From Phoenix dactylifera (Eukaryota; Streptophyta; Magnoliopsida; Arecales; Arecaceae), in the NCBI RefSeq assembly GCF_009389715.1, contig NC_052392.1, positions 35,199,144 through 35,263,143 on the forward strand: 64,000 bases of DNA, in the 5' to 3' direction. Made by a program: the position numbers and the translations under genes. The stretch's first letter is position 1; each line of letters opens with the position of its first letter. Below are positions 17,375 through 47,405 of this stretch, in pieces. The notes under the pieces were generated by a model. That model ran no database searches. It was not told the origin of the DNA and saw nothing but the letters and a program-made list of their open reading frames with translations.

Positions 17375-17383
17375 ATCTAGATG

Positions 17384-17450
17384 GGGTAGTTCTAAATACA
17401 CCCCCCCCCCGATTGCTCAGGACACCCCCCAAAAACAAAAAAAAAAATAC
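17384..17450. repeat. MULE left terminal inverted repeat (outer part)
   Basis: GGGTAGTTCTAAATACACCC, a C-run, then GATTGCTCAGGACACCCCCC and an A-rich stretch. It is matched inversely at 21985-22050 and in the short derivative at 25947-26010. Confidence 0.9.
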
Positions 17451-17646
17451 CCAAACTAACCTTTAGTGTAATTACCATTTTACCCTTAAAATTTTCTCAG
17501 TACACCCCCCTTCCTCCTCCTCCGTCTCCTCCTCCGTTTCGTTTTCAAAAGAAAAAAAAAAAACACCCTCAAATCCCCCTTAAACCCCTCGATCCATTTA
17601 CATCGTTTAGGCGATCTTTGAAGGAGATTTAAGCCCCATTCGAAGC

Positions 17647-18475
17647 ATGGACAAGCAACTAGTGATTTGGGACGAAGAATCGGCCGCAAAGGTACGTGTT
17701 CCACCTTGTTTCGAAAGTTTTTTTTTTTTCACGGTTCGTGCTCCGTTCGGCACTGGATCGCCGAACAGAAGGCTTCTGTTCGGCTGCATAGTGCCGAACA
17801 GAAGCCTTCTGTTCGGCAACCCTCAGCCGAACAGAAGCCTTCTGTTCGGCAACCCTCAGCCGAACAGTGCCGAACATAAGGCTTCTGTCCGGCACACTGC
17901 AGCCGAACAGAAGGCTTCTGTTCGGCACTGGGTTGCCGAACAGAAGGCTTCTGTTCGGCACTCTGCAGCCGAACAGAAGCCTTCTCGTGCCAAATCGCGT
18001 GCCGTGAATTTTGTGCCGAACAGATCCTCTGATTCATTAATTCTTGGTGATAAATTATTTTATATGTAGGGCTATGCTACAACCGAATCGAGTATAATTG
18101 GATCAGAATTTGTACTGGATTACACAAGCGAATTTACAACTTACGAGGTATTATAATATATTGTGCAATTTTGTATTAGTTTAGCGAGCTATTTTTACAA
18201 CTGTGTACTTACATAAATTGTTTAATGTATAGATCTTCAAGAGTAGAGAGGACTTGTGTAATTGGTGTCGTGAAGCTGGGAGGCGAAATGGTTTTGTTGT
18301 TGTAATCAAATCATCCGATGCAGGTACCATTTCTAAGAAACCCAGAATTACGTTAGGTTGTGAGAGGGGTGGGACGTACCGAACCACAAAAGAAAAGCGA
18401 ATAAAGACTGCCTGTGGGACAAAGAAGTGTGGATGCAGTAGAGTTACAATTAGCGAGACAGTAGAGTTAGATTGA
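17647..18475 (+). pseudogene. Truncated MULE transposase gene, FAR1-type DNA-binding N-terminus
   Basis: Three exons fit GT-AG rules in a single phase. Exon 1 (17647-17691) is MDKQLVIWDEESAAK. Exon 2 (18070-18147) begins GYATTESSIIGSEFVLDYTS. Exon 3 (18233-18475) begins IFKSREDLCNWCREAGRRNG and continues with VIKSSDAG, LGCERGGTYR and GTKKCGC. The LGCERGG...GTKKCGC pattern is the FAR1/WRKY-GCM1-type zinc finger that opens many plant MULE transposases. After CGC the frame leaves the family within a few residues and stops (122 codons in all). The DDE catalytic domain and SWIM finger are absent, replaced by captured sequence. Intron 1 contains the left palindrome array. The product, if any, would bind DNA without catalysing transposition. 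Confidence 0.75.
17743..18020. repeat. Left array of short palindromes (arms GCCGAACAGAAG / CTTCTGTTCGGC)
   Basis: About seven near-perfect inverted units of 25 bp, each with a one-base G or C centre, separated by 6-9 bp spacers such as TGCATAGT or AACCCTCA. One unit carries point changes (CATAAGG, TGTCCGGC). The array ends CGTGCCAAATCGCGTGCC, whose inverse starts the right array, so the array belongs to the extended TIR. It lies inside intron 1 of the transposase gene. Confidence 0.93.
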
Positions 18476-18528
18476 TTGTTTATATATGTACAATTTTTTA
18501 AAGTTGTAAATTTTTTTGGGCTCTTAGA
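18464..18528. repeat. Direct repeat bracketing captured cargo, copy 1
   Basis: GAGTTAGATTGATTGTTTAT through GGGCTCTTAGA, about 65 bp, is repeated at 19051-19114 with only a few differences. The two copies enclose exactly the DRM and AGO4-like fragments. Confidence 0.93.
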
Positions 18529-18745
18529 CCTTTCTGATGTACAAGAACTTAACGGTGACAAGCTTGAGCAGATGATTAACACATTTGGTGGGTTTGATCT
18601 GGTTATTGGTGGAAGTCCATGTAATAATCTTTCAGGTAGCAACCGCTATAGTCGTGATGGGCTGGAGGGTAAACATTCATCTCTTTTTTATGATTATTTT
18701 CGCATCTTACACCTTGTGAAGTGTATCATGGGGAAGAACTTCTGA
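18528..18745 (+). pseudogene. DRM2-like: Captured fragment of a DRM-type de novo cytosine methyltransferase
   Basis: An open plus-strand frame of about 72 codons reads DLSDVQELNGDKLEQMINTF, then GGFDLVIGGSPCNNLSGSNR and DGLEGKHSSLFYDYFRIL, ending at TGA after GKNF. The GGSPCNNL(A/S)GSNR segment is the DRM motif IV, containing the catalytic cysteine of the plant DOMAINS REARRANGED METHYLTRANSFERASE family. These enzymes carry out RNA-directed de novo DNA methylation. Only this central piece of the catalytic domain is present, with no UBA domains and no other motifs, so it cannot encode an active enzyme. It starts at the inner edge of the first 65-bp direct repeat. The frame is otherwise intact, suggesting a fairly recent capture. 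Confidence 0.85.
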
Positions 18746-18765
18746 TTGCACCATCTCACTTTCTT

Positions 18766-18820
18766 GTTGAGCAGGCATCATCATTTCTGAAGGAAAAGTT
18801 GAGCAGGCATTATCATTTCT
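18766..18820. repeat. Short tandem duplication in captured filler
   Basis: TTGAGCAGGCATCATCATTT, then GAAGGAAAAG, then TTGAGCAGGCATTATCATTT. Such small direct repeats are common at repair junctions. Confidence 0.85.
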
Positions 18821-18844
18821 TTTGTTGGAAAAGAGGGCTCTGTG

Positions 18845-19045
18845 ATGTCCTTGGTTAAGAGGTTAATCGGCTGCCCTCTCCTTGCAAGGCCAGGTCTTGC
18901 CACTGGCACCCTCTTAGGCTTTGCTGCCTTTTTTGGAGGGGAACTTTGTCCAGGGTCAGCTTTGATTGGAACAACATTTGGAGGTACCTCAGAGGGAGGT
19001 GGAGGCAGAACATCAGTCGTATCAGATTCAGGGTCAAACCCCCCA
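18845..19045 (-). pseudogene. AGO4-like: Captured N-terminal fragment of an AGO4-clade Argonaute
   Basis: The minus strand has an uninterrupted frame reading GFDPESDTTDVLPPPPSEVP, then PNVVPIKADPGQSSPPKKAA, then KPKRVPVARPGLARRGQPIN and LLT. The pattern of a proline run, PPNVxPxKA, a lysine-rich linker, RVPxARxGxxxxGQxIxLLT is the conserved start of plant AGO4/6/9-clade proteins (recognised from memory of the family; no search run). These proteins load 24-nt siRNAs and guide DRM methyltransferases. Only the extreme N-terminus is present. It lies in opposite orientation to the DRM piece, in the same orientation as the PMD gene, and ends against the second 65-bp direct repeat. Confidence 0.7.
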
Positions 19046-19050
19046 CGGGA

Positions 19051-19114
19051 GAGTTAGATTGATTGTTTATATATGTACAATTTTTGAAAGTTGTAAATTT
19101 TTTTGGCCTCTTAG
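19051..19114. repeat. Direct repeat bracketing captured cargo, copy 2
   Basis: Second copy of the 65-bp sequence at 18464-18528. It continues into non-captured MULE sequence (GTCATGTACTGTG), suggesting that the original element was interrupted here. Confidence 0.93.
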
Positions 19115-19315
19115 AGTCATGTACTGTGAAACTCCATCATCAATATAAATCAAAAAATATCTGTATTCGCATTGTTAGATTGATTGTTATGTGCACTGTT
19201 GTATTTTCGTAAAATAGAACGGGCCAGGCCTTACAAAGATTACACGTAAATGTACCAAAAATATATATTTTTCATTAATATCAAAGGCTTTACAAAGATT
19301 ACAAAGGCTCCATCA

Positions 19316-21230
19316 TCAATCCCTATGACGCCATCGTCGACGCGTGTACTGCTGTACGTCCGAATGAGAGGGTCCTGGATCCGAATGAGAGGGTGCTGTA
19401 CTCGGGCCAGGCTCATCACCCAGAAGTACCTGATGCATCTGAGAAATAGCATCATATAGGTGCCCGGCACCTAGTGACGTAGCCTCTGGGCGACCCATCC
19501 GTACAATGTCGGTACTGATACCGACTGCATCTGCAATACGCCGCCGGTGCATGTCAGCATCATCATGACCTCCCCTAGCTCCAGAATGAGTACTCGAGCG
19601 CAGATGAGGAGGCTGAACTGCAACGTGCGTGATACGGAGATACCACTCCATATATCCCGGTACGCTGTCTGATGGCCGGGTAACTGGGTGGCTCCTGCTC
19701 GCCTGGCTCAGCACGTGGTCCTCCCACCGCTCCCAAAGCTGATCCATATAGGAGTAATGTATCCGGTACGAGCCTGCTGTGGAACCTCTGTTGGCTCGCG
19801 TAGGGGCTAGTGGCGCTCGAGGGATGGTCTGAATACGACCAAACTGTCTAAGAACCCTTTCTGGATGATAGGGTTCTACGATATCAAGGCACTTGATGGA
19901 GCCAGTAAAAAATGCGACGGGTATATATGGGCGATCTCCCCGAAGCCGATGATGGGGATCCCAAATAACCTGCAAAACAAAAGGTACATTTCAGTTTTAT
20001 ACTATATCGCATATTAAAAGTACTGACAAACACAAGCAAATGGTAATATGATACGTACCTCATCGATGCTCAAAAGGTCCAAGTACTCACGTAGAACCAC
20101 TAAATGGTCCATCGTGGTACGGGATGGAGTGCCGGGCATCCAGCGGTGCACGCGGGGACTGGCATCAGTATACTCGAGCGACGGGTGAGGACTGAGTGCA
20201 GGAAAATGCTCATAAATCCATGCCTGCAGAAGCGTCATATAACCACTGATCTGTCTCACTGATGACCTCGACGCAATCCCCAACTGCCGATACAAATATG
20301 CTAAGGCAGCTGTACCCCAGGCATATGTGCTCACCCTATCCAGATCCCGCAGTAAACACAGATACGCTATAGGCACCCTGGTCCCACTCTTATCAGCAAA
20401 GAGTGTGCAGCCTAACAAAAATAACAAATAGGCTCGTGCTGCACACTCTATCCTCTGCTGGCTGTCTCTATCAGATACTGAGTGAAACTGAGTCCTCAGC
20501 CACTCCATCCTCACAGACTGACCGCGCGATGACAGTACCTCCTGACGCGCGTCTCCAGCTGACACCCCCAACAACTCCACAAGTAGCTCCTCAGCATCCC
20601 GATCACTCATCCTCTCAGGAGAAACTGATACTGAGGAACCTGCGACTGGAATCCCTAAAATGGCGGATACATCATCCAACGTGATAGTGATCTCGCCAAA
20701 TGGTATATGGAAGGTGTTCGTCTCGGGCTGCCATCTCTCTACGAAGCCCGAAATCAGAATCTTATCGATGAATCGATAAGAGCACTGCACTAACTCTACG
20801 AGGCCCGACTGCCTCAATAGTGCTCTGAACCTGGTATTTGGTTGGTTTGAAGACCACCACTTCCATTCACCAACCTTGGCAGTATGGTTCATGCACTTGA
20901 GTGGAGCTCGTTCCTGTAATATAAATGTATAATTACTACTACTTTATAAAACATCAATAAACAAAATATAATGCTATAACAAATAAACAATACCTGTTGC
21001 CTCCAGATGGAAGCTGCTATATGCGTCCTGAAACTGATCAGGACGGACTCATCCTCTGGACCTCCTGGACATGGTCCAACGGGCTCATCGTCTTCGCCCC
21101 TAGCGGGCATATCATCATGCTCTGACTCAGGAGAGTCCGATGGCATATGAGCAGGCTCGGGAGAAGCAATCCTAGCACGACGTCTCCTAGCTGACGCCGT
21201 AGGTCTAACTCTGGCGGGACGGGGATCCAT
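19316..21230 (-). CDS. Plant mobile domain (PMD, MAIN-like) protein, transposon-borne
   Basis: Three minus-strand exons join in phase 0: 21230-20994 (79 codons, starting MDPRPARVRPTASARRRR), 20913-20059 (285 codons) and 19969-19316 (217 codons plus stop), giving 581 residues. Splice sites are CAACAG/GTATTG, ATTACAG/GAACG, GATGAG/GTACGT and TTTGCAG/GTTATT. The N-terminus is basic, then acidic. The PMD proper runs from about residue 90 to 400, with FVERWQPETNTFHIPFGEIT followed by DVSAILGIPV, YLLFLLGCTLF and ALAYLYRQLG. Near residue 470 is the PMD-typical YMEWYLRITH; the tail is Ser/Pro-rich and ends RRRWRHRD. Cellular MAIN/MAIL1 relatives act with PP7-like phosphatase in silencing and genome stability, and PMDs are known passengers of plant MULE and Ty3/gypsy elements. 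No frame damage is seen. The function within the element is unknown. Confidence 0.85.
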
Positions 21231-21284
21231 GTCTGAAAATATAGAAATTCAATGTTAGGCTACATCAAAGAAAATAATTCAATT

Positions 21285-21546
21285 GGCACGGCACGCGATT
21301 TGGCACCGGAACCCTTCTGTTCGGCTGCTCAGAGCCGGACAGAAGGCTTCTGTTCGGCTGCTCAGAGCCGGACAGAACCATTCTGTTCGGCACTGTGCAG
21401 CCGAACAGAAGGCTTCTGTTCGGCACCGTGCAGCCGAACAGAAGGCTTCTGTTCGGTTGAGTGTTGCCGAACAGAGGGCTTCTGTTCGGCACTGTTCAGC
21501 CGAACAGAAGGGTTCTGTTCGGCGATCCAGTGCCGAACGGAGCACT
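21285..21546. repeat. Right array of short palindromes
   Basis: Six to seven units with arms GCCGAACAGAAG and CTTCTGTTCGGC, some with GGACAGAA variants, separated by spacers such as TGCTCAGA and ACCGTGCA. It begins GGCACGCGATTTGGCAC and ends GATCCAGTGCCGAACGGAGC, the inverse of the left array edges. It sits just upstream of the PMD start codon, so it may also form part of the PMD promoter or 5' UTR. Confidence 0.93.
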
Positions 21547-22050
21547 GGAGGCAGGGGGGTGGAGCTACCTCGACGTGGTCGTGGAGGCGCCGGCGAGGTG
21601 CTCGTTGCTCGGGAGATGGCCGGGGAGGTGGTTCCGGGAGAATGCCGGCGACGAGAGGGAGAAGGGGAGAATGCCGGCGACGAGAGGGAGAAGGGGGAAC
21701 GGGGGGGTTTTGGGCGTTGGCGAGGTGCACTGCACCGACCGGCGACGAGAGGAAGAAGGGGGAGACGGAGGGGGTTTGGAGGGGCTTGAGGTGCTTGAGG
21801 CGAAGTTTTTTGGGCGGAAGGGAGAAGCCGGCTGGAGTGGTGTTTTGGAGGGGAAGAGCGGGGTGGGGGGGGGTTTGGGGGGTGTAGAGAGCAATTTAGG
21901 TGAGGGGGTGGGGAGAGTGAAGGGTAATTTAGGATTTTTCAATTTTTTAGGGGTGTCCTTAGCAAATGGGGGGGTGTAGAGAGTATTTAATTTTTTTTTA
22001 ATTTTTGGGGGGTGTCCTGAGCAATCGGGGGGGTGTATTTAGAACTACCC
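21547..22050. repeat. MULE right subterminal G-rich region and outer TIR
   Basis: G/A-rich sequence (21550-21935), then TTAGGGGTGTCCTTAGCAAA, ATGGGGGGGTGTAGAGAG and the outer TIR ending GTATTTAGAACTACCC. The last 100 bp are nearly identical to the right end of the short derivative. Long frames here are low-complexity artefacts. Confidence 0.85.
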
Positions 22051-22484
22051 ATCTAGATGTGATCCAGAAACCATTTGGCGTTTCTCAAAGGAAACGTACC
22101 CAGAATTTGTAGCCAACTATAATAATTATGCAGGCTGACAGAGGGAATGCCCAAGCATTTATATCAGGTATGATACTTTTTGCAGAAAGAGAAACGAAAA
22201 GATCATTGCGGATTTCACTAAATTATTCCATATAAATATTGATTTTGCGAGAAAAGTCATATAAATCTTATTTTATAAAATCATATATATTTAGATGTTA
22301 CTTGATGTCGGTATACCGAGTCTGGATTGGGCGCCCATGTTGGGCCCAGCCAACCCTCGTTGTTCAAATTTCAAGCAAAAGAGGGAGGTACCCGTTGGGA
22401 GAAGCTAACATTCGGTTCCCACCCCTCCCCATTACCTCTTAACTTAACAATAATAATAAAAAAAAACTCTCTTCTTATGCACAG
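22051..22484. repeat. Duplicated block Y, copy 1
   Basis: TGTGATCCAGAAACCATTTGG through GCTAACATTCGGTTCCCACC matches 32643-33020, and its right half matches 1-65. It resumes after the solo LTR at 25447-25550 with ATTCAACAAGAATCTC. Nothing coding is seen. Confidence 0.8.
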
Positions 22485-25937: not shown

Positions 25938-26806
25938 CAACGACATGGGCCGTTCTAAATACACCCCCCCTATTGCTCAGGACACCCCCCAAAAATTAAA
26001 AAAAAAATACCCAAACTAACCTTTAGTGTAATTACCATATTGCCCTTGAAATTTTCTCAGTACACCCCCCTTCCTCCTCCTCCGTTTCGTGCTCCGTTCG
26101 GCACTGGATCGCCGAACAAAATGCTTCTGTTCGGCTGAACGGTGCCGAACAGAAGGCTTCTGTTCGGCGATCCAGTGCCGAACAGAAGGCTTCTGTTCGG
26201 CAACCCTCAACCGAACAGAATCCTTCTGTTCGGCGGAGGGTAGGAGAGGAGGGGTAGGAGGGTGGGGAGGAGGCGGCGGAGGGGGGAGGGGTAGGAGGGA
26301 TAGTTGGAGGAGGGGGAGGTGGAGGAGGAGGAGGAGGAGGGGGAGGTGGAGGAGAAGGGGGAGGAGGGGTAGGAGGAGGAGGAGGAATGGGAGCAGGGAG
26401 GAATAGGGGGTGGAGGAGGAGGCAAAGAAGGGGGAGAAGGCGGAGGGGGATGCAGAGTAAGAGGGGATGGGGATGGGGGGCGGAGGTAGAGGGGTGGAGG
26501 AGTAGGAGGAGGGAGGAGGGAGGAGGAGGAGGAGGGTGAATAGGCGGAGGAGGAGGGGAGAGGGATGAGGGGGAGGCAGAGGTGGGCGGGAAGAGGGGGA
26601 GGGGGAGGCAGAGGTGGGCGGGAAGAGGGGGAGGAGGAGGAGGCAGAGGCGGGGGGTGGGGAGGGTGGGGGTAATTTAGGAATTTTTAATTTTTTAGGGG
26701 TGTCCTTAGCAAATGGGGGGGTGTAGAGAGTATTTAATTTTTTTTTAATTTTTGGGGGGTGTCCTGAGCAATAGGGGGGGTGTATTTAGAACTACCCCAA
26801 CGACAT
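25938..26806. mobile_element. Short non-autonomous MULE of the same family
   Basis: The element proper is 25947-26797 (851 bp), flanked by the 9-bp direct repeat CAACGACAT (25938-25946 and 26798-26806). Its paralogous empty site reads GCCAACCACATTTATC at 63865-63880. The left 150 bp and right 110 bp are almost the same as those of the 4.67-kb element. The interior has a palindrome array at 26089-26237 followed by a G/A-rich tract. There is no coding sequence. It is an internal-deletion derivative mobilised by the same transposase. Confidence 0.93.
26089..26237. repeat. Palindrome array in short MULE
   Basis: Three to four units with arms GCCGAACAGAAG and CTTCTGTTCGGC, one bearing CAAAATGC, flanked by GTGCTCCGTTCGGCACTGGA. 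Retention in a deletion derivative suggests the array matters for transposition. Confidence 0.92.
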
Positions 26807-26976: not shown

Positions 26977-28587
26977 CTATGAAGGATAAATATAGGACAA
27001 TACAGAATATACTGTCTGCATGACAGTCAGCAAGAGCAGAAAGGCCGCTGCCAACACTGAAATTGTAGCCCATGGGTTGCCAACATAGTCTCGCCTCAAA
27101 GCGGCAAGCCATTTGTGACATTTGAGTTCATAAAACCTGTTTATTTCCTCAATCTGATTTGCAAGGTAGTTCTTTTCCCAATCATAGTGTATCTGGTTGC
27201 CCAACCGATTAAAGAGGTTTGCCACTTCTTGATGATTGCTTAGCTTATGTTGCAGTATGCCTTCGAAGCAGAGCAACTGCACGTCCTCAGCCTGGTGGAT
27301 AATGCAGTCCATAAAGAGTGCGTATATCGTAATGTACATCTCAGTGTCGAAATAGCACTGTTCGAAAGCTATGACGTTTCGGAAGAGAGGACCGGTATAG
27401 TCATAGATTTGCAGTAGTGGTATCTCCATCCGCCCACTCCTAAGCATTAAACACAACTTCTGGAGGCACAGCAGTGGCGTGAGCTTCATCTTCCTTCTCC
27501 CGAAATTTATGTTCAAGAAACTGTCTGTCAGTTTCTTCCTCTTGAACTTCACCCCAGCCCTGTCGAGCTCTATCGCACGAGGAATCCACTTGGGTGCAGA
27601 TCCTCGTGGAGGATCAACTTCTGCTTTCTTGCAGTTGCACTTCATGAGTTCAGGAATACATCCTGATGCACATGTCGAAGTCGGTGCAAATGTTGAATCC
27701 CCTTGTGAAGGAGCAGCTTCCTCTGGTACAGATGTAGACTCTACTGGCTTTTCTGAAGGGATCCGAGATGAATAAAATAGATGGAGCAAATGATGGTATT
27801 CTCTAGGGGACTTCTTCTTGGACTTCTTGAATGATTCGGATTCCTCGGGTTGGATGCCCTTGAAAAGCTGGAGAGCAAGGTCAACAAGATTAATCTGTCC
27901 ATCCTCGCATGGTATGAGACGATCAAATAGCAATTGGATGATGGAGAAAGGAATTTGGTTCTCAAGCTTCAGCAGATCATAAACCACTAAATTAATAGTG
28001 AACCGCCCTGCCACAGTTGGGTACTCAAGCTGTTCATCCTTCTCCTCGATATTTAAAACAACCTCCCCTTCCCTCGTCTCAATCATACACTCTCTCCTCT
28101 TCTTGCCCTCATCCTCCTTGGTTGCCTTGCCTTCCTCCTCTTTCTCCCTTAGCATGAGACAAATGATGAAGCACCCATCAAGCAACATGATCAATGCCAT
28201 ATCCTGGGCATTCAGTGTGGAGAATTCCTCGGAGTAGCAACTCCGAACCTTCTCATCCTGTTTCTTCAACTCTAACAAGCACTCGTTAAACAATTGACTT
28301 GCATGCTCCCGACTTCGATGACGCGATAGAATGTGCCGGACACACCGCCACTTGTGGTCGTTCATGAAGGAACTCCCATCGCTGTTGTGGTGAAAAGGTC
28401 CAAGGAAAGCAATCACAGGTTCGTAGGCTTCATTATCCAACTGTCGGATGTGCTTGGGGACTTTGAAGATGGCGCATGGTCCTTCGAGATGGTCCATAGT
28501 TTGTGCTAAATTTACTTGATTCCTAGCTCCATTGATCCACGCCTCGTCGGTTTGGCAGCTAGGGGTAGATTTGTCGGTGGAAGGCAT
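26977..28587 (-). CDS. DUF247 (UPF0481) family membrane-anchored protein
   Basis: Single-exon gene of 536 residues, starting MPSTDKSTPSCQTDEAW and stopping after SYIYPS. The DUF247 domain spans nearly the whole protein. It has CAIFKVPKHIRQLDNEAYEP near residue 40, then VIAFLGPFHH, DMALIMLLDGCFIICLML, YDLLKLENQIPF (the family LLENQIPFF-like motif, about residue 210) and a C-terminal segment DYVGNPWATISVLAAAFLLL. The last ~30 residues form one hydrophobic helix, as in other DUF247 proteins. Inserts rich in Lys/Glu (about 150-175) and Ser/Pro (about 285-320) are variable regions. The length is normal and no damage is seen. Biochemical function is unknown; in grasses two DUF247 clades are tied to self-incompatibility, but nothing here links this gene to that role. 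Its 5' flank is shared with blocks near 14985 and 30885. Confidence 0.92.
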   Translation of the reverse strand: MPSTDKSTPSCQTDEAWINGARNQVNLAQTMDHLEGPCAIFKVPKHIRQLDNEAYEPVIAFLGPFHHNSDGSSFMNDHKWRCVRHILSRHRSREHASQLFNECLLELKKQDEKVRSCYSEEFSTLNAQDMALIMLLDGCFIICLMLREKEEEGKATKEDEGKKRRECMIETREGEVVLNIEEKDEQLEYPTVAGRFTINLVVYDLLKLENQIPFSIIQLLFDRLIPCEDGQINLVDLALQLFKGIQPEESESFKKSKKKSPREYHHLLHLFYSSRIPSEKPVESTSVPEEAAPSQGDSTFAPTSTCASGCIPELMKCNCKKAEVDPPRGSAPKWIPRAIELDRAGVKFKRKKLTDSFLNINFGRRKMKLTPLLCLQKLCLMLRSGRMEIPLLQIYDYTGPLFRNVIAFEQCYFDTEMYITIYALFMDCIIHQAEDVQLLCFEGILQHKLSNHQEVANLFNRLGNQIHYDWEKNYLANQIEEINRFYELKCHKWLAALRRDYVGNPWATISVLAAAFLLLLTVMQTVYSVLSYIYPS

Positions 28588-42108: not shown

Positions 42109-43653
42109 ATGCCACGAAACTGTGAGCTAATTGAGCTTTTTGATCTATAAATTGAGAGAACCCTACGAGCATTAAGGAAACAACAAAGATTAGAGCTAAA
42201 GCAAAAACGAGCAGTAGCCATGGCAGATAACCAAGATAACCAGAATAAAAGATTGTTGAGTGACTATGCCGTGCCGAATGTCAATGGTGCTCAACCCAGT
42301 ATTGTGAGACCTACTGTCAATTCTAATAATTTTGAGGTTAAGCCTGGTCTCATCCAGATGGTGCAGCAGGAGCAGTTTGGTGGAGGACCTGCTGAGGATC
42401 TGCATGCACACCTTGCCAATTTTTTGGAGATTTGTGATACAATCAAGATGAATGGAGTTAGTGATGATGCTATTCGACTTCGACTTTTTTCATTTTCTCT
42501 AAAGGATAAAGCCAAGGCCTGGTTGAATTCCAAAGCGCCTAACTCTTTCACCACCTGGAATGCCTTGTCGCAAGCTTTTCTGAGTAAGTATTTTTCCCCA
42601 GGTAAGACTGCCAAACTTAGAAATGATATTACCAGTTTTGCTCAGTTTGATGGTGAATCTTTGTATGAAGCCTGGGAGAGGTTTAAGGATTTGCTGAGGA
42701 AGTGTCCACATCATGATCTTCCTGACTGGCTGATTGTACTGACTTTCTATAATGGATTAATACATTCAGTTAGGATTACCATAGATGCAACTGCAGGAGG
42801 TACTTTAATGAGTAAGTCAACAGAAGAGGCATATGAGTTGTTAGAAGAAATGGCCTCTAACAATTATCAGTGGTCTAATGAAAGAGGTATGCCTAAGAAA
42901 GTTTCAGGTATGTATGATGTAGATGGCATAAACATGTTGAATGCCAAGGTTGATTCTCTAGTAAAAATATTCGGTAAGCTGGGTAATGTGAATTCCGTTT
43001 CTAGTCCTGTATTGAGTTGTGATTGCTGTGGAAGAGCTCACATGAGTTCTGATTGTATGCAGGTTCAATTTATGTCTAATTATAACAGGTAGCAGCAGCA
43101 GAACAACCCTTATTCTAACACATACAACCCAGGCTGGAAGAATCATCCCAACTTTTCATGGAAAGATCAAGGTAACCAAGGTGGCAGTTCTTGACCTCTC
43201 CATCCTCCTGGTTTCCAACCTAGACCATCCCAACCAGAAAGTAAGCAGTCTTGGGAGATAGCTATTGAGAAGTTAGCCAATGCCAGTTCAGAGAGATTTG
43301 AGAGACTGGAAGCAAAGGTTGACTAGTTGGCGAGTTCCAACAGAAATGTGGAGGTGCAATTGGGGCAGTTAGCCAATTCCATCAATTCTCGTGGACAAGG
43401 TAATTTGCCTAGTAAGACAGAGGTCAATCCGAAGGAGCATTGCAAGGCAGTCACCTTGAAAAGTGGTAAGCAACTTGGTCAGGTAAGTGGTGAGACTATA
43501 GTTAGTGATGAAGTAGACTATGAAGAGGTGAGCAAGAAGGTCGATGAAGAAGTTGAGGACCTAGCCAAGACACCATCCCCACTACCACCAGTCGAACCTT
43601 ATGTTCCTCCCATTCCTTTTCCTCAAAGGCTTAAGCAGAATAAAATTGATCAA
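42109..43653 (+). pseudogene. gag: Athila gag, broken by stops
   Basis: One continuous plus-strand frame from the ATG at 42109. The longest open part is 42220-43092 and encodes the capsid-like region, including GLIQMVQQEQFGGGPAEDLH and AIRLRLFSFSLKDKAKAWL, and a C-x2-C zinc-finger-like DCCGRAH motif near 43020. Stops lie at 42148 (TAA), 43090 (TAG), 43192 (TGA) and 43324 (TAG), and at 43654 (TAG) at the boundary with the next open part. Gag would form the virus-like particle. Coding between the stops is well conserved, so the breaks are recent relative to the age of the family. Confidence 0.9.
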
Positions 43654-43668
43654 TAGTTTGAGAAATTT

Positions 43669-46600
43669 TTGAAAGTGTTTAGGCAGCTTCACATTAATAT
43701 TCCTTTTGCAGACGCCTTAGCACAAATTCCTGCATATACAAAATTTTTAAAGGAGATCATGTCTAAGAAGAGGAAATTGGAAGATTTCGAGACCATTGCC
43801 TTGATGGAGGAATGCAGTGCCATTATCCAGAATAAGCTTCCACCAAAGCTAAGAGATCCAGGGAGTTTTTCTATTCCTTGTATTATAGGTGATGTTGATT
43901 TTTCTAGAGCTTTGTATGATTTAGGTGCTAGTGTTTCACTAATGCCTTTATCTGTGTCTAGGAAGCTTGGATTGAAGGAGTTGAAGCCTACTACCATCTC
44001 TTTGTAGCTAGCTGATCGATCGGTCAAATATCCTTTGGGTGTTCTTGAGAATGTGCTGATCAAAGTAAAGAAGTTTATCATTCCAGTTGATTTTATTGTG
44101 TTGGAGATGGAAGAAGACACCGAGATCCCTATCATTTTAGGCTGGCCCTTTCTAGCCACTGCTGGAGTTATCATAGATGTTAAGAATGGTAGGTTGACTT
44201 TGAAGGTCAGTGAAGAAGAGGTAGAGTTTAATTTATTTGAAGCTACTAAATATCCTTCTTTTACTGATCATGTTTTTCGAGTTGATGTTGTAGATGAGTC
44301 GACCAGAGAGGTTTTTAGGGCTGAAAATACTAAAGAACCTCTTGAGACTTGTTTAGTGAGTGCAGGGACAAGTAAAGATGATAATCTAGAGGTTGCTAAA
44401 GTGGCGTGTGCATTAGAGGCTACATGTCCTATGCCAAAGAAGAGAGGTATTTATTTTGAGGATATCGGCAAAGGTAAGCCACCCCCTCCCCCTTCTAATG
44501 TGCAAGCACCAGTTCTAGAGTTGAAACCATTACCCTCATATCTCAGGTATGCATTTTTAGGCAAAAATAATACTTTGCCTGTGATTGTGAGTGCTTCTTT
44601 GTCTGATGAGCAACTTGACAAATTGATACGTATTTTGAGATTGAGAAAAAAAGCCATAGGATGGACTATATCAGACCTTAGAGGAATTAGCCCTTCATTG
44701 TGTATGCATAGAATTTTAATGGAGGATAACCATAAACCTATTGTTGAAAATCAGAGACGATTAAATCCTAACATGAAAGAAGTAGTTAGGGCTAAAGTTC
44801 TTAAATGGTTAGATGCAGGAATTTTTTATCCTATATTCGATAGTTCATGGATTAGTCCAGTGCAGGTAGTACCTAAAAAGGGTGGGATGACTGTGGTGCA
44901 TAATGAAAATAATGAATTAATTCCCACTAGGACAGTAATTGGGTGGAGAGTCCGCATAGATTATAGGAAACTTAATAATGTTACCCGTAAGGATCATTTT
45001 CCTTTACCTTTTCTTGATCAGGTGCTTGAGAGACTTGCTGGGTATGCATATTACTGTTTTTTAGATGGTTATTCAGGGTATAACTAGATTTCTATATCCC
45101 CCGAAGATCAAGAAAAGACCACCTTCACTTGTTCTTATGGTACTTTTGCATTCCGTAGGATACCTTTTGGTTTGTGTAATGCACCTGCTACATTCCAACG
45201 TTGCATGATGGCTATTTTCTCTGATTTTGTTGAAAAGATTATGGAGGTTTTCATGGATGATTTTTCTATTTTTGGATCTTCTTTTGATGGTTGTTTAGAT
45301 AACTTATCTCGAGTTTTGCAGCGTTGTGAGGAGACCAATTTGGTCTTGAATTGGGAGAAATGTCATTTTATGGTGCAGGAAGGTATTGTTTTAGGCCACA
45401 AAATTTCAGCAAGAGGCCTTGAGGTGGACCGAGCAAAAATAGAAATTATTGAAAAATTGCCACCACCTACAAATGTTAAGGGAGTTAGAAGTTTTCTTGG
45501 TCACACAGGATTTTACCGGCGTTTTATTAAGGATTTCTCTAAAATTTCTAAACCTCTTTGTAATCTGTTGAATAAGGATGTTGTGTTTGATTTTGATAAG
45601 GACTGTTTGAATGCTTTTAACAGGTTGAAGCAAGAGTTGGTGTCAGCACCAATTATGGCAGCCCTAGATTGGAGTTTGCCTTTTGAGCTAATGTGTGATG
45701 CTAGTGATTTCGCTTTGGACGCTGTTCTCGGCCAGAGAAAAGACAGGAAGTTGCATGTTATATATTATGCTAGTAGAGTTTTAAATAATGCACAGTTGAA
45801 TTATGCAACTACCGAAAAAGAATTGCTTGCTGTTGTATTTGCTTTTGACAAGTTTCGATCTTATCTTGTAGGTTCCAAGGTAATCGTATATATGGACCAT
45901 TCAGCAATCAAGTACTTGCTGAAAAAAAAAAAGATGCCAAACCATGCTTGATTCGGTGGGTGTTGTTGCTTCAAGAATTTGATCTTGAAATTCGAGACAA
46001 GAGAGGCATGGAGAATATGGTGGCAGATCACTTGTTTAGATTAGAGGGGCAGTCAAGAGCAGATGAGGTGCCCATTAATGAAAGCTTTCCAGATGAGCAG
46101 TTGTTGGCAGTTTCAGTCATCCCCTGGTATGCTGATTTGGTGAACTATTTGGTGAGTGGCATTGTTCCCCCTGATTTGAGCTATCATCAGAAGAAAAAGT
46201 TTTTGTGGGATGTGAAGCATTATTTTTGAGAAGAACCGCTACTCTATAAACACTGTGCAGATGGGATGATTAGAATATGTGTGCCCCAAGATAAGATGCA
46301 GGACCATTGTCATTCCTTGGAGTGTGGTGGACATTTCAGTACCTCTAAGACAGTTGCAAAGGTAGGGCAGTCTCGTTTTTACTGGCCGACCATGTATCAA
46401 GATACTAGACAATATGTGAGCATGTGTGATAGATGTCAGAGGGTTGGCAACATTTCAAAAAAGAATGAGATGCCCTTGACCAATATCCTGGAGGTTGAAC
46501 TGTTTGATTTATGGGGAATTGATTTCATGGGCCCATTTTCTTCTTCCTTCAATAATCAGTACATTCTGGTAGCAGTGGATTATGTATCTAAATGGGTTGA

Positions 46601-47405
46601 AGCTACTGCAACTCAGACTAATGACTCTCGGGTGGTGATGAGATTTGTGAAGAAAAATATTTTTTCAAGATTTGGTGTGCCGAGAGCTATTATTAGTGAT
46701 GAAGGCTCCCATTTTTGTAATCGGTCATTTGAGGCTTTGTTGAAGAAATATGGGGTTACTCATAAGGTGGCACTTGCCTATCATCCCCAAACAAATGGGC
46801 AAGTAGAACTTGCAAATAGGGAATTGAAGCAAATTTTGGAGAAAACTATGAGCAGTTCAAAAAAGGATTGGGCGAATAAGTTTGATGATGCACTTTGGGC
46901 CTATAGGACAGCTTTCAAGACACCTTTGGGTATGTCTCCTTACAGACTTGTCTTTGGAAAGTCTTGTCACTTACCAGTGGAATTGGAACACAGGGCCTAC
47001 TGGGCAATCAAGGAGTTGAACATGGATTTGAAAGCTGCGGGAGAAAAGAGATTGTTACAGTTGAGTGAGTTGGAGGAGTTTAGGTTGGATGCTTATGAAA
47101 ATACTCGGATTTACAAGGAAAAGATAAAGCATTGGCATGACAAACATCTTCAGATTAGAAACTTCGAAATTGGGCAGCAAGTATTACTCTTCAACTCAAG
47201 ACTTAAGTTATTTCCAGGCAAGCTTCGTTCTAGGCGGTCTGGCCCATTCACGGTAACGAAAGTGTATCCATATGGTGCTGTTGAGGTGCGTAGTGAGGTC
47301 ACTGGTGCATTCAAGGTTAATGGGCAGCGTTTGAAGCCTTATCTTGCTAGTAATGCAGTTCCTAAAGGAGTGATTTACTCTTTGAAGAATTCTACCTATG
47401 GTTGA
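43669..47405 (+). pseudogene. pol: Athila pol: protease, RT, RNase H, integrase, broken
   Basis: The protease motif ALYDLGASVSLMP lies near 43910. Reverse transcriptase runs from about 44690, with WISPVQVVPKKGG, FRRIPFGLCNAPATFQRC and the active-site FMDDFSIFG at 45251-45277. RNase H has LMCDASDFALDAVLGQ near 45690. Integrase has the zinc-binding region ending MCDRCQR (about 46420), DFMGPF, SDEGSHF and [10 protein letters not shown] for the DDE residues, and a C-terminal [16 protein letters not shown] end (here [12 protein letters not shown]). Breaks are TAG at 44005 and 45085, a frameshift in the A-tract at 45921-45931, and TGA at 46227. The reading frame is otherwise clean. Confidence 0.93.

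What the first reader, a model, noticed from the sequence alone, without database searches (positions are those of the whole stretch)
17384..22050. A Mutator-like element carrying pieces of two RNA-directed DNA methylation genes plus an intact PMD gene
Seen: one 4.67-kb element with a 9-bp target duplication holds a DRM-type methyltransferase fragment (GGSPCNNLSGSNR) and, on the other strand, a fragment with the AGO4-clade N-terminal pattern, next to a complete PMD gene. Known: DRM and AGO4 work together in RNA-directed DNA methylation, and PMD proteins such as MAIN/MAIL1 act in transposon silencing. Inference: the element has gathered pieces of the pathway that silences it, and may interfere with that pathway through homologous small RNAs. 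Gene capture by MULEs is well known; this combination is, as far as I know, not.
Basis: partly seen in the sequence, partly recalled or inferred. Interest (0 to 1): 0.93.

Follow-up and report, generated by a model that had tools for sequence, protein, structure and literature searches.

The report
Palm transposon carrying silencing-gene pieces
A jumping gene in a date-palm-like genome carries near-identical scraps of two host genes that silence jumping genes, beside a complete gene of its own; the scraps are real, but nothing yet shows that they do anything.

Summary
Window 17384-22050 is a 4,667-bp element with matching ends and a perfect 9-bp target duplication. It carries the C-terminal 72 residues and native stop of DRM2 (1 difference from Phoenix dactylifera DRM2-like). 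On the other strand it carries residues 3-68 of AGO4B (1 difference from P. dactylifera AGO4B-like). A three-exon PMD gene model (581 aa) is intact. The host is thus probably a palm at or near Phoenix. The two fragments form one 521-bp block bracketed by a 66-bp direct duplication (2 mismatches), best read as one recent error-prone repair event. The block lies between two convergent units, has no ATG leading into either fragment, and folds no better than shuffles. A second, 851-bp family member in the window lacks this cargo. Parts of the story are in print: PMD genes captured by MULEs, and rice miR820/CACTA acting on DRM2. No listed row of nine literature searches (lists capped) described DRM2 and AGO4 pieces together. 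Most likely this is a Pack-MULE-like passenger. Selected interference with RNA-directed DNA methylation is possible but unshown. The host genome search did not complete (ten tries), so recurrence and copy number are untested; expression could not be tested.

The parts
17375..17383 (.). left target-site duplication ATCTAGATG
22051..22059 (.). right target-site duplication ATCTAGATG
17384..17449 (+). left terminal inverted repeat
   Evidence: 66 aligned columns, 90.9% to the right end
21988..22050 (-). right terminal inverted repeat
17738..18006 (+). left subterminal array of about 33-bp palindrome-rich repeats (core GAACAGAAGGCTTCTGTTC, nearly palindromic)
21287..21545 (-). right subterminal array, inverted relative to the left (83.7% over 270 aligned columns)
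17647..18475 (+). putative truncated transposase-type gene, exons 17647-17691, 18070-18147, 18233-18475 joined by eye; FAR1-like only by recalled pattern
   Evidence: exons read from sequence; no significant Pfam or PDB match
18463..18528 (+). first copy of the 66-bp direct duplication flanking the cargo block
   Evidence: (96.97% identity)
18527..18745 (+). captured 3' coding end of DRM2: 72 residues and native stop codon
18746..18850 (+). 105 bp of unassigned filler between the fragments (perhaps DRM2 3' untranslated region), with a 23-bp repeat
   Evidence: origin not tested
18851..19050 (-). captured 5' coding part of AGO4B: residues 3-68 (19050-18853)
19050..19115 (+). second copy of the 66-bp direct duplication
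20994..21230 (-). PMD gene exon 1 (predicted)
20059..20913 (-). PMD gene exon 2 (main PMD domain)
19316..19969 (-). PMD gene exon 3 and stop
25947..26797 (+). second family member, 851 bp, target duplication CAACGACAT, shared ends and repeats, no match to the DRM, AGO4 or PMD parts

Best explanation
This is a MULE-type DNA transposon of a Phoenix-like palm that keeps its own PMD gene but shows no catalytic transposase. In one error-prone break repair it took in a patchwork of host DNA: the last coding stretch of DRM2, about 105 bp of filler, and the first coding stretch of AGO4B in the opposite direction. Shown: the ends, the target duplication, the two donors at protein level, the open PMD frame, and the 66-bp duplication bracketing the block. 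Inferred: repair by strand invasion with template switching, which copied 66 bp of element sequence twice when it rejoined. Inferred: the cargo makes no working protein and is at most a source of RNA. It is sense for DRM2 and antisense for AGO4B in left-end transcripts, and could feed small RNAs matching both host mRNAs without having been selected for that.
For: Ends and 9-bp duplications. Donor identities, 1 of 72 and 1 of 66 residues different from Phoenix. The block 18529-19049 is bracketed by a 66-bp direct repeat, 2 mismatches, with overlaps of at most two bases at the joins, judged from the protein alignments (host DNA not seen). A 23-bp repeat lies inside the filler. No in-frame ATG before the DRM2 part (internal ones at residues 16 and 68) and none within the AGO4B part. 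PMD exon structure. No unusual fold: whole region z +0.63, 15 of 20 shuffles as stable or more, plus strand; lowest z -1.3 among 21 windows of 150 bases on each strand. The other member in the window lacks cargo. [quoted passage not shown]
Against: Two random scraps both coming from core RNA-directed DNA methylation genes is a striking coincidence, in an element that also carries a gene of a family linked to transposon silencing. My rough estimate, from the rice count and recalled figures (about 40 pathway genes of 27,000, a fifth of elements multi-gene), is near 1 in 1,000 per genome for such a pair by chance; across many genomes that is not prohibitive. An internal ATG could give 57 residues of DRM2, and splicing of the block to upstream exons is not excluded. 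The repair model rests on one locus, without an empty relative for comparison.
Confidence: 0.72

Rival explanations
1. Selected anti-silencing cargo: convergent transcription from both ends makes double-stranded RNA over the block. The resulting small RNAs lower host DRM2 and AGO4B, weaken RNA-directed DNA methylation and let the family move. PMD may add a second counter-silencing activity.
For: Near identity to both host proteins. The block lies between the two convergent units. Of five polyadenylation-like words scanned on the plus strand, the only matches lie beyond the block, at 19142 and 19260. Rice miR820 in CACTA elements lowers OsDRM2 (passages of PMC3459959). PMD transcripts make phased small RNAs in tea (abstract and passages of PMC10673657). 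An anti-silencing use of captured PMD was proposed in PMC5418596 (passages) and PMC8616336 (passages).
Against: No expression or small-RNA data. On the minus strand polyadenylation-like words at 19276 and 19269 (and one at 18699) could end PMD transcripts before the AGO4B part. Small RNAs from transposons normally silence the transposon itself. No microRNA-type fold. No sign of recurrence: the one other member in the window lacks it.
Confidence: 0.12
2. Two separate captures: DRM2 and AGO4B scraps came in at different times, side by side.
For: Opposite orientation, different parts of the genes (3' end against 5' end) and an unassigned 105-bp middle.
Against: One pair of flanking repeats brackets both, and each fragment differs from Phoenix by one residue, so ages look alike. 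The Phoenix DRM2-like and AGO4B-like proteins list a contig of the same length, 40,814,151 bases, which fits a shared chromosome.
Confidence: 0.13
3. Assembly or mapping artefact that joined unrelated palm DNA.
For: Only one sequence was seen, and reads were not available.
Against: The element ends, target duplications and flanking repeats are consistent across the block, and both fragments carry their own private differences from Phoenix.
Confidence: 0.03

Closest known systems
Pack-MULEs (gene-fragment-carrying Mutator-like elements of rice, tomato and others)
   Same: Inverted ends, 9-bp target duplication, fragments of host genes (definition and counts in passages of PMC3310237).
   Different: Keeps a complete gene (PMD) and what looks like transposase remnants. 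Its two scraps both come from the RNA-directed DNA methylation pathway and sit inside a duplicated stretch of the element.
PMD-C-bearing MULEs of grasses and Amborella (Ikeda et al. 2017, PMC5418596, passages seen)
   Same: A MULE carrying a PMD gene. PMC7156037 (passages) also notes transposon-associated PMD-C motifs outside eudicots.
   Different: There PMD is described as fused to the transposase; here it is a separate gene on the opposite strand, in a palm, and the PMD clade was not determined.
miR820 in rice CACTA transposons (Nosaka et al. 2012, PMC3459959, passages seen)
   Same: A DNA transposon carrying a piece derived from host DRM2.
   Different: Pre-miR820 matches the second exon to third intron of OsDRM2, forms a microRNA fold-back and was shown to lower OsDRM2. 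Here the piece is the 3' coding end, without an unusual fold and without functional data, and AGO4B is added.
VANDAL elements with VANC anti-silencing proteins (passages in PMC13317346 and PMC8616336)
   Same: MULE-type elements that counter silencing; VANC recognises short motifs in non-coding parts of related elements.
   Different: VANC acts as a protein. No VANC-like protein was looked for here beyond Pfam scans of a few frames.

Membership tests
Mutator-like element (MULE) | 9-11 bp target-site duplication | tested here: met
   ATCTAGATG both sides; second element CAACGACAT
Mutator-like element (MULE) | terminal inverted repeats, usually over 100 bp | tested here: inconclusive
   66 columns at 90.9%, plus subterminal inverted arrays of about 270 at 83.7%; shorter than typical, though 50 bp was accepted for multi-TIR elements in PMC3310237
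Mutator-like element (MULE) | MULE transposase, or mobilisation by one | tested here: inconclusive
   no transposase domain in the pieces scanned; FAR1-like exons recalled only; a partner elsewhere could not be sought (genome search did not complete)
Pack-MULE | carries host gene fragments between the ends | tested here: met
   DRM2 and AGO4B fragments
PMD-C MULE | PMD gene inside the element | tested here: met
   Pfam PF10536, 581-aa model, 120 of 120 listed hits carry PF10536
PMD-C MULE | PMD fused to transposase | tested here: not met
   separate three-exon model on the minus strand
PMD-C MULE | PMD nested in clade C | not tested
   no tree with reference clades was built
miR820-like anti-DRM2 transposon | microRNA hairpin derived from DRM2 | tested here: not met
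   18440-19120 (+) z +0.63; 21 windows of 150 bases per strand, lowest z -1.3
miR820-like anti-DRM2 transposon | small RNA that lowers DRM2 | not testable with these tools
   needs small-RNA and transcript data

The most novel reading that the evidence does not exclude
A MULE family in Phoenix palms acts as a double suppressor of RNA-directed DNA methylation. It makes small RNAs from one block that target both the guide protein (AGO4B) and the methyltransferase (DRM2), while encoding a PMD protein that blunts the parallel MAIN/MAIL1 silencing route.
Probability: 0.08. Interest if true: 0.93.

Novelty: new variant of a known kind. Interest (0 to 1): 0.5.

Why it matters
Whether transposons take pieces of the host's silencing genes to defend themselves is an open question with few natural cases; rice miR820 against DRM2 is the clearest one seen here. 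This element pairs pieces of two proteins that work side by side in the pathway, nearly unchanged from the host proteins. That makes a clear test possible in palms: copy number, small RNAs and host transcripts with and without the block. If the test is negative, it is still a clean example of how a repair accident packs two host genes into a transposon.

Tried and rejected
Whole-genome search for other copies: the genome search with where 'own' was asked ten times in the same form and was busy each time, so no statement on recurrence is made. AGO fragment against the PDB: no match at E 10; settled. MicroRNA-type fold over the cargo: not supported. Transposase in the element: none in the pieces scanned; the FAR1-like label has no significant Pfam or PDB match (AFT at E 0.15; an unrelated chain at E 0.81). 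One repeat-rich frame, 21252-21887 (+), matched the A20 zinc finger at E 0.00012 with no stretch passing on its own; taken as a repeat artefact. Other copies of the cargo in the window: only two short matches of 22 and 19 bases, E 0.33. Rfam over the window: one hit, outside the element. Dating by the 66-bp duplication gives 1.2 to 5.9 million years for three recalled rates, limits 0.1 to 21, so it only says recent. GC contents of the parts gave no clear signal. PMC5861414 is not held. PMC8903248 gave no figures on multi-gene capture for the terms searched. PMC11986588 mentions AGO4 and DRM2 only as pathway members (passages). A tree of PMD clades was not built.
Full report
What is there. Window 17384-22050 has the form of a complete DNA transposon. 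Its first 23 bases recur as the exact reverse complement at the other end; 100 shuffles gave a mean of 0.00 matches. Identical 9-mers flank it. The ends align over 66 columns at 90.9%, and further in are two inverted arrays of palindrome-rich repeats. A second, 851-bp element of the same family lies at 25947-26797 with its own 9-bp duplication. It shares the ends (92% over 150 and 96% over 147 columns) and the repeats, but has no match to the coding cargo.

The two fragments. Bases 18527-18745 read as 72 residues and a stop. In the PDB they match a 'DNA methyltransferase' (4onj, tobacco DRM by recall, E 2.7e-32) and then DRM2 chains (about 6e-22). In the large protein set 638 of 645 candidates passed E 1e-5, and all 120 listed rows carry the C-5 methylase domain PF00145. 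The highest identity among the listed rows is Phoenix dactylifera DRM2-like, 97%. Two rows score higher in bits at lower identity: an oat protein (59%), which carries this end twice (sequence), and a Stephania protein (79%), not examined. Residue by residue the fragment differs from Phoenix by 1 of 72, from oil palm by 6 of 72, and ends at the host's own C-terminus. On the minus strand 19050-18853 reads as 66 residues. 14 of 227 candidates passed E 0.01; all 14 carry argonaute and Piwi domains, and the best is Phoenix dactylifera argonaute 4B-like. It differs from residues 3-68 of that protein by 1 of 66, and from coconut by 8 of 66. Candidates were limited to proteins of roughly full argonaute or DRM length. 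So the host is probably at or near Phoenix (inference), and both captures look recent on that lineage. The Phoenix proteins list contigs of the same length, 40,814,151 bases, which suggests one chromosome; distance unknown.

How they came in. Both fragments, with 105 bp of unassigned sequence between them, form a 521-bp block bracketed by a direct repeat of 66 bp with 2 mismatches. The element sequence before the block is thus repeated after it. This is what break repair with template switching would leave: copying left the element, took DRM2, filler and AGO4B, and rejoined 66 bp upstream. That is inference from one locus. The two mismatches give only a loose age, 1.2 to 5.9 million years for three recalled rates, limits 0.1 to 21.

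The genes of the element. On the minus strand three exons with GT-AG introns and no frame break give a 581-aa PMD protein (Pfam). 442 proteins passed E 1e-5 among the 7,999 candidates scored (a cap); 120 were listed, all with PF10536. Many named rows are MAIN-LIKE proteins of Camellia and legumes. One Camellia protein matches over 99% of the length at 49% identity; no listed row bears a palm name, though some are unnamed. On the plus strand three short exons (17647-18475) look like the start of a FAR1-type transposase gene. That name is recalled: Pfam gave only a sub-threshold AFT match, E 0.15, and PDB nothing relevant. No transposase domain was found in the pieces scanned, so the element is probably not autonomous.

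Could the cargo act? No in-frame ATG leads into the DRM2 part (internal ones at residues 16 and 68, the first giving 57 residues) and none lies within the AGO4B part. Neither piece is a whole domain. As RNA the block lies between two convergent units: left-end transcripts would carry DRM2 sense and AGO4B antisense. Of five polyadenylation-like words, plus-strand matches occur only past the block (19142, 19260); on the minus strand they lie just after PMD (19276, 19269) and at 18699, so PMD transcripts may stop before the block. The region folds no better than shuffles as a whole (plus strand, z +0.63) or in 21 windows of 150 bases per strand (lowest z -1.3 of 21 plus, -0.34 of 21 minus, 40 shuffles each), so nothing resembles a microRNA precursor like that of miR820. 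Nothing here shows expression.

What is known. PMC5418596 (passages) reports PMD-C genes captured twice by MULEs, as fusions with transposase, and speculates on anti-silencing. PMC7156037 (passages) notes transposon-associated PMD-C motifs outside eudicots. PMC3459959 (passages) shows that miR820 in rice CACTA elements lowers OsDRM2, and that its precursor probably came from OsDRM2. PMC10673657 (abstract and passages) reports phased small RNAs from PMD genes in tea. PMC13317346 (passages) reviews maize work in which captured fragments act as small-RNA reservoirs that can silence donors, and VANC. PMC8616336 (passages) suggests that transposon PMDs may counter silencing. Nine literature searches were run. 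They listed 20 of 433, 20 of 28, 20 of 76, 5 of 5, 7 of 7, 10 of 16, 12 of 13, 10 of 45 and 2 of 2 papers, and not all were aimed at this pairing. No listed title or abstract opening describes DRM2 and AGO4 fragments together in one element; subscription papers are mostly not held.

Judgement. The description is right and the combination is unusual. The simplest account is a recent repair accident in a PMD-carrying MULE. A selected role stays possible, and testable with palm genome and small-RNA data that these tools did not give: the host genome search did not complete.

Noticed in passing
25947-26797: A second member of the same transposon family, 851 bp, with GGAGG-rich filler and its own 9-bp target duplication CAACGACAT.
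   Followed up: yes
17738-18006, 21287-21545, 26083-26235: Arrays of about 33-bp units with the nearly palindromic core GAACAGAAGGCTTCTGTTC, shared by both elements; possibly binding sites for a transposase or an anti-silencing protein.
   Followed up: partly
42613-42719 (-): Rfam match to plant snoRNA snoR71 (74.4 bits, gathering score 40) lying inside the gag reading frame of a Ty3-type retrotransposon (42220-43092), on the opposite strand.
   Followed up: no
26977-28587 (-): Uninterrupted 536-aa reading frame of the DUF247 family (Pfam E 7.3e-103) close to the second element.
   Followed up: no
42220-47405: Ty3-type retrotransposon with gag and integrase frames.
   Followed up: no
P0015 (Avena sativa protein): An annotated oat DRM-type protein whose C-terminal methyltransferase end is repeated in tandem; may be an annotation error.
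   Followed up: no
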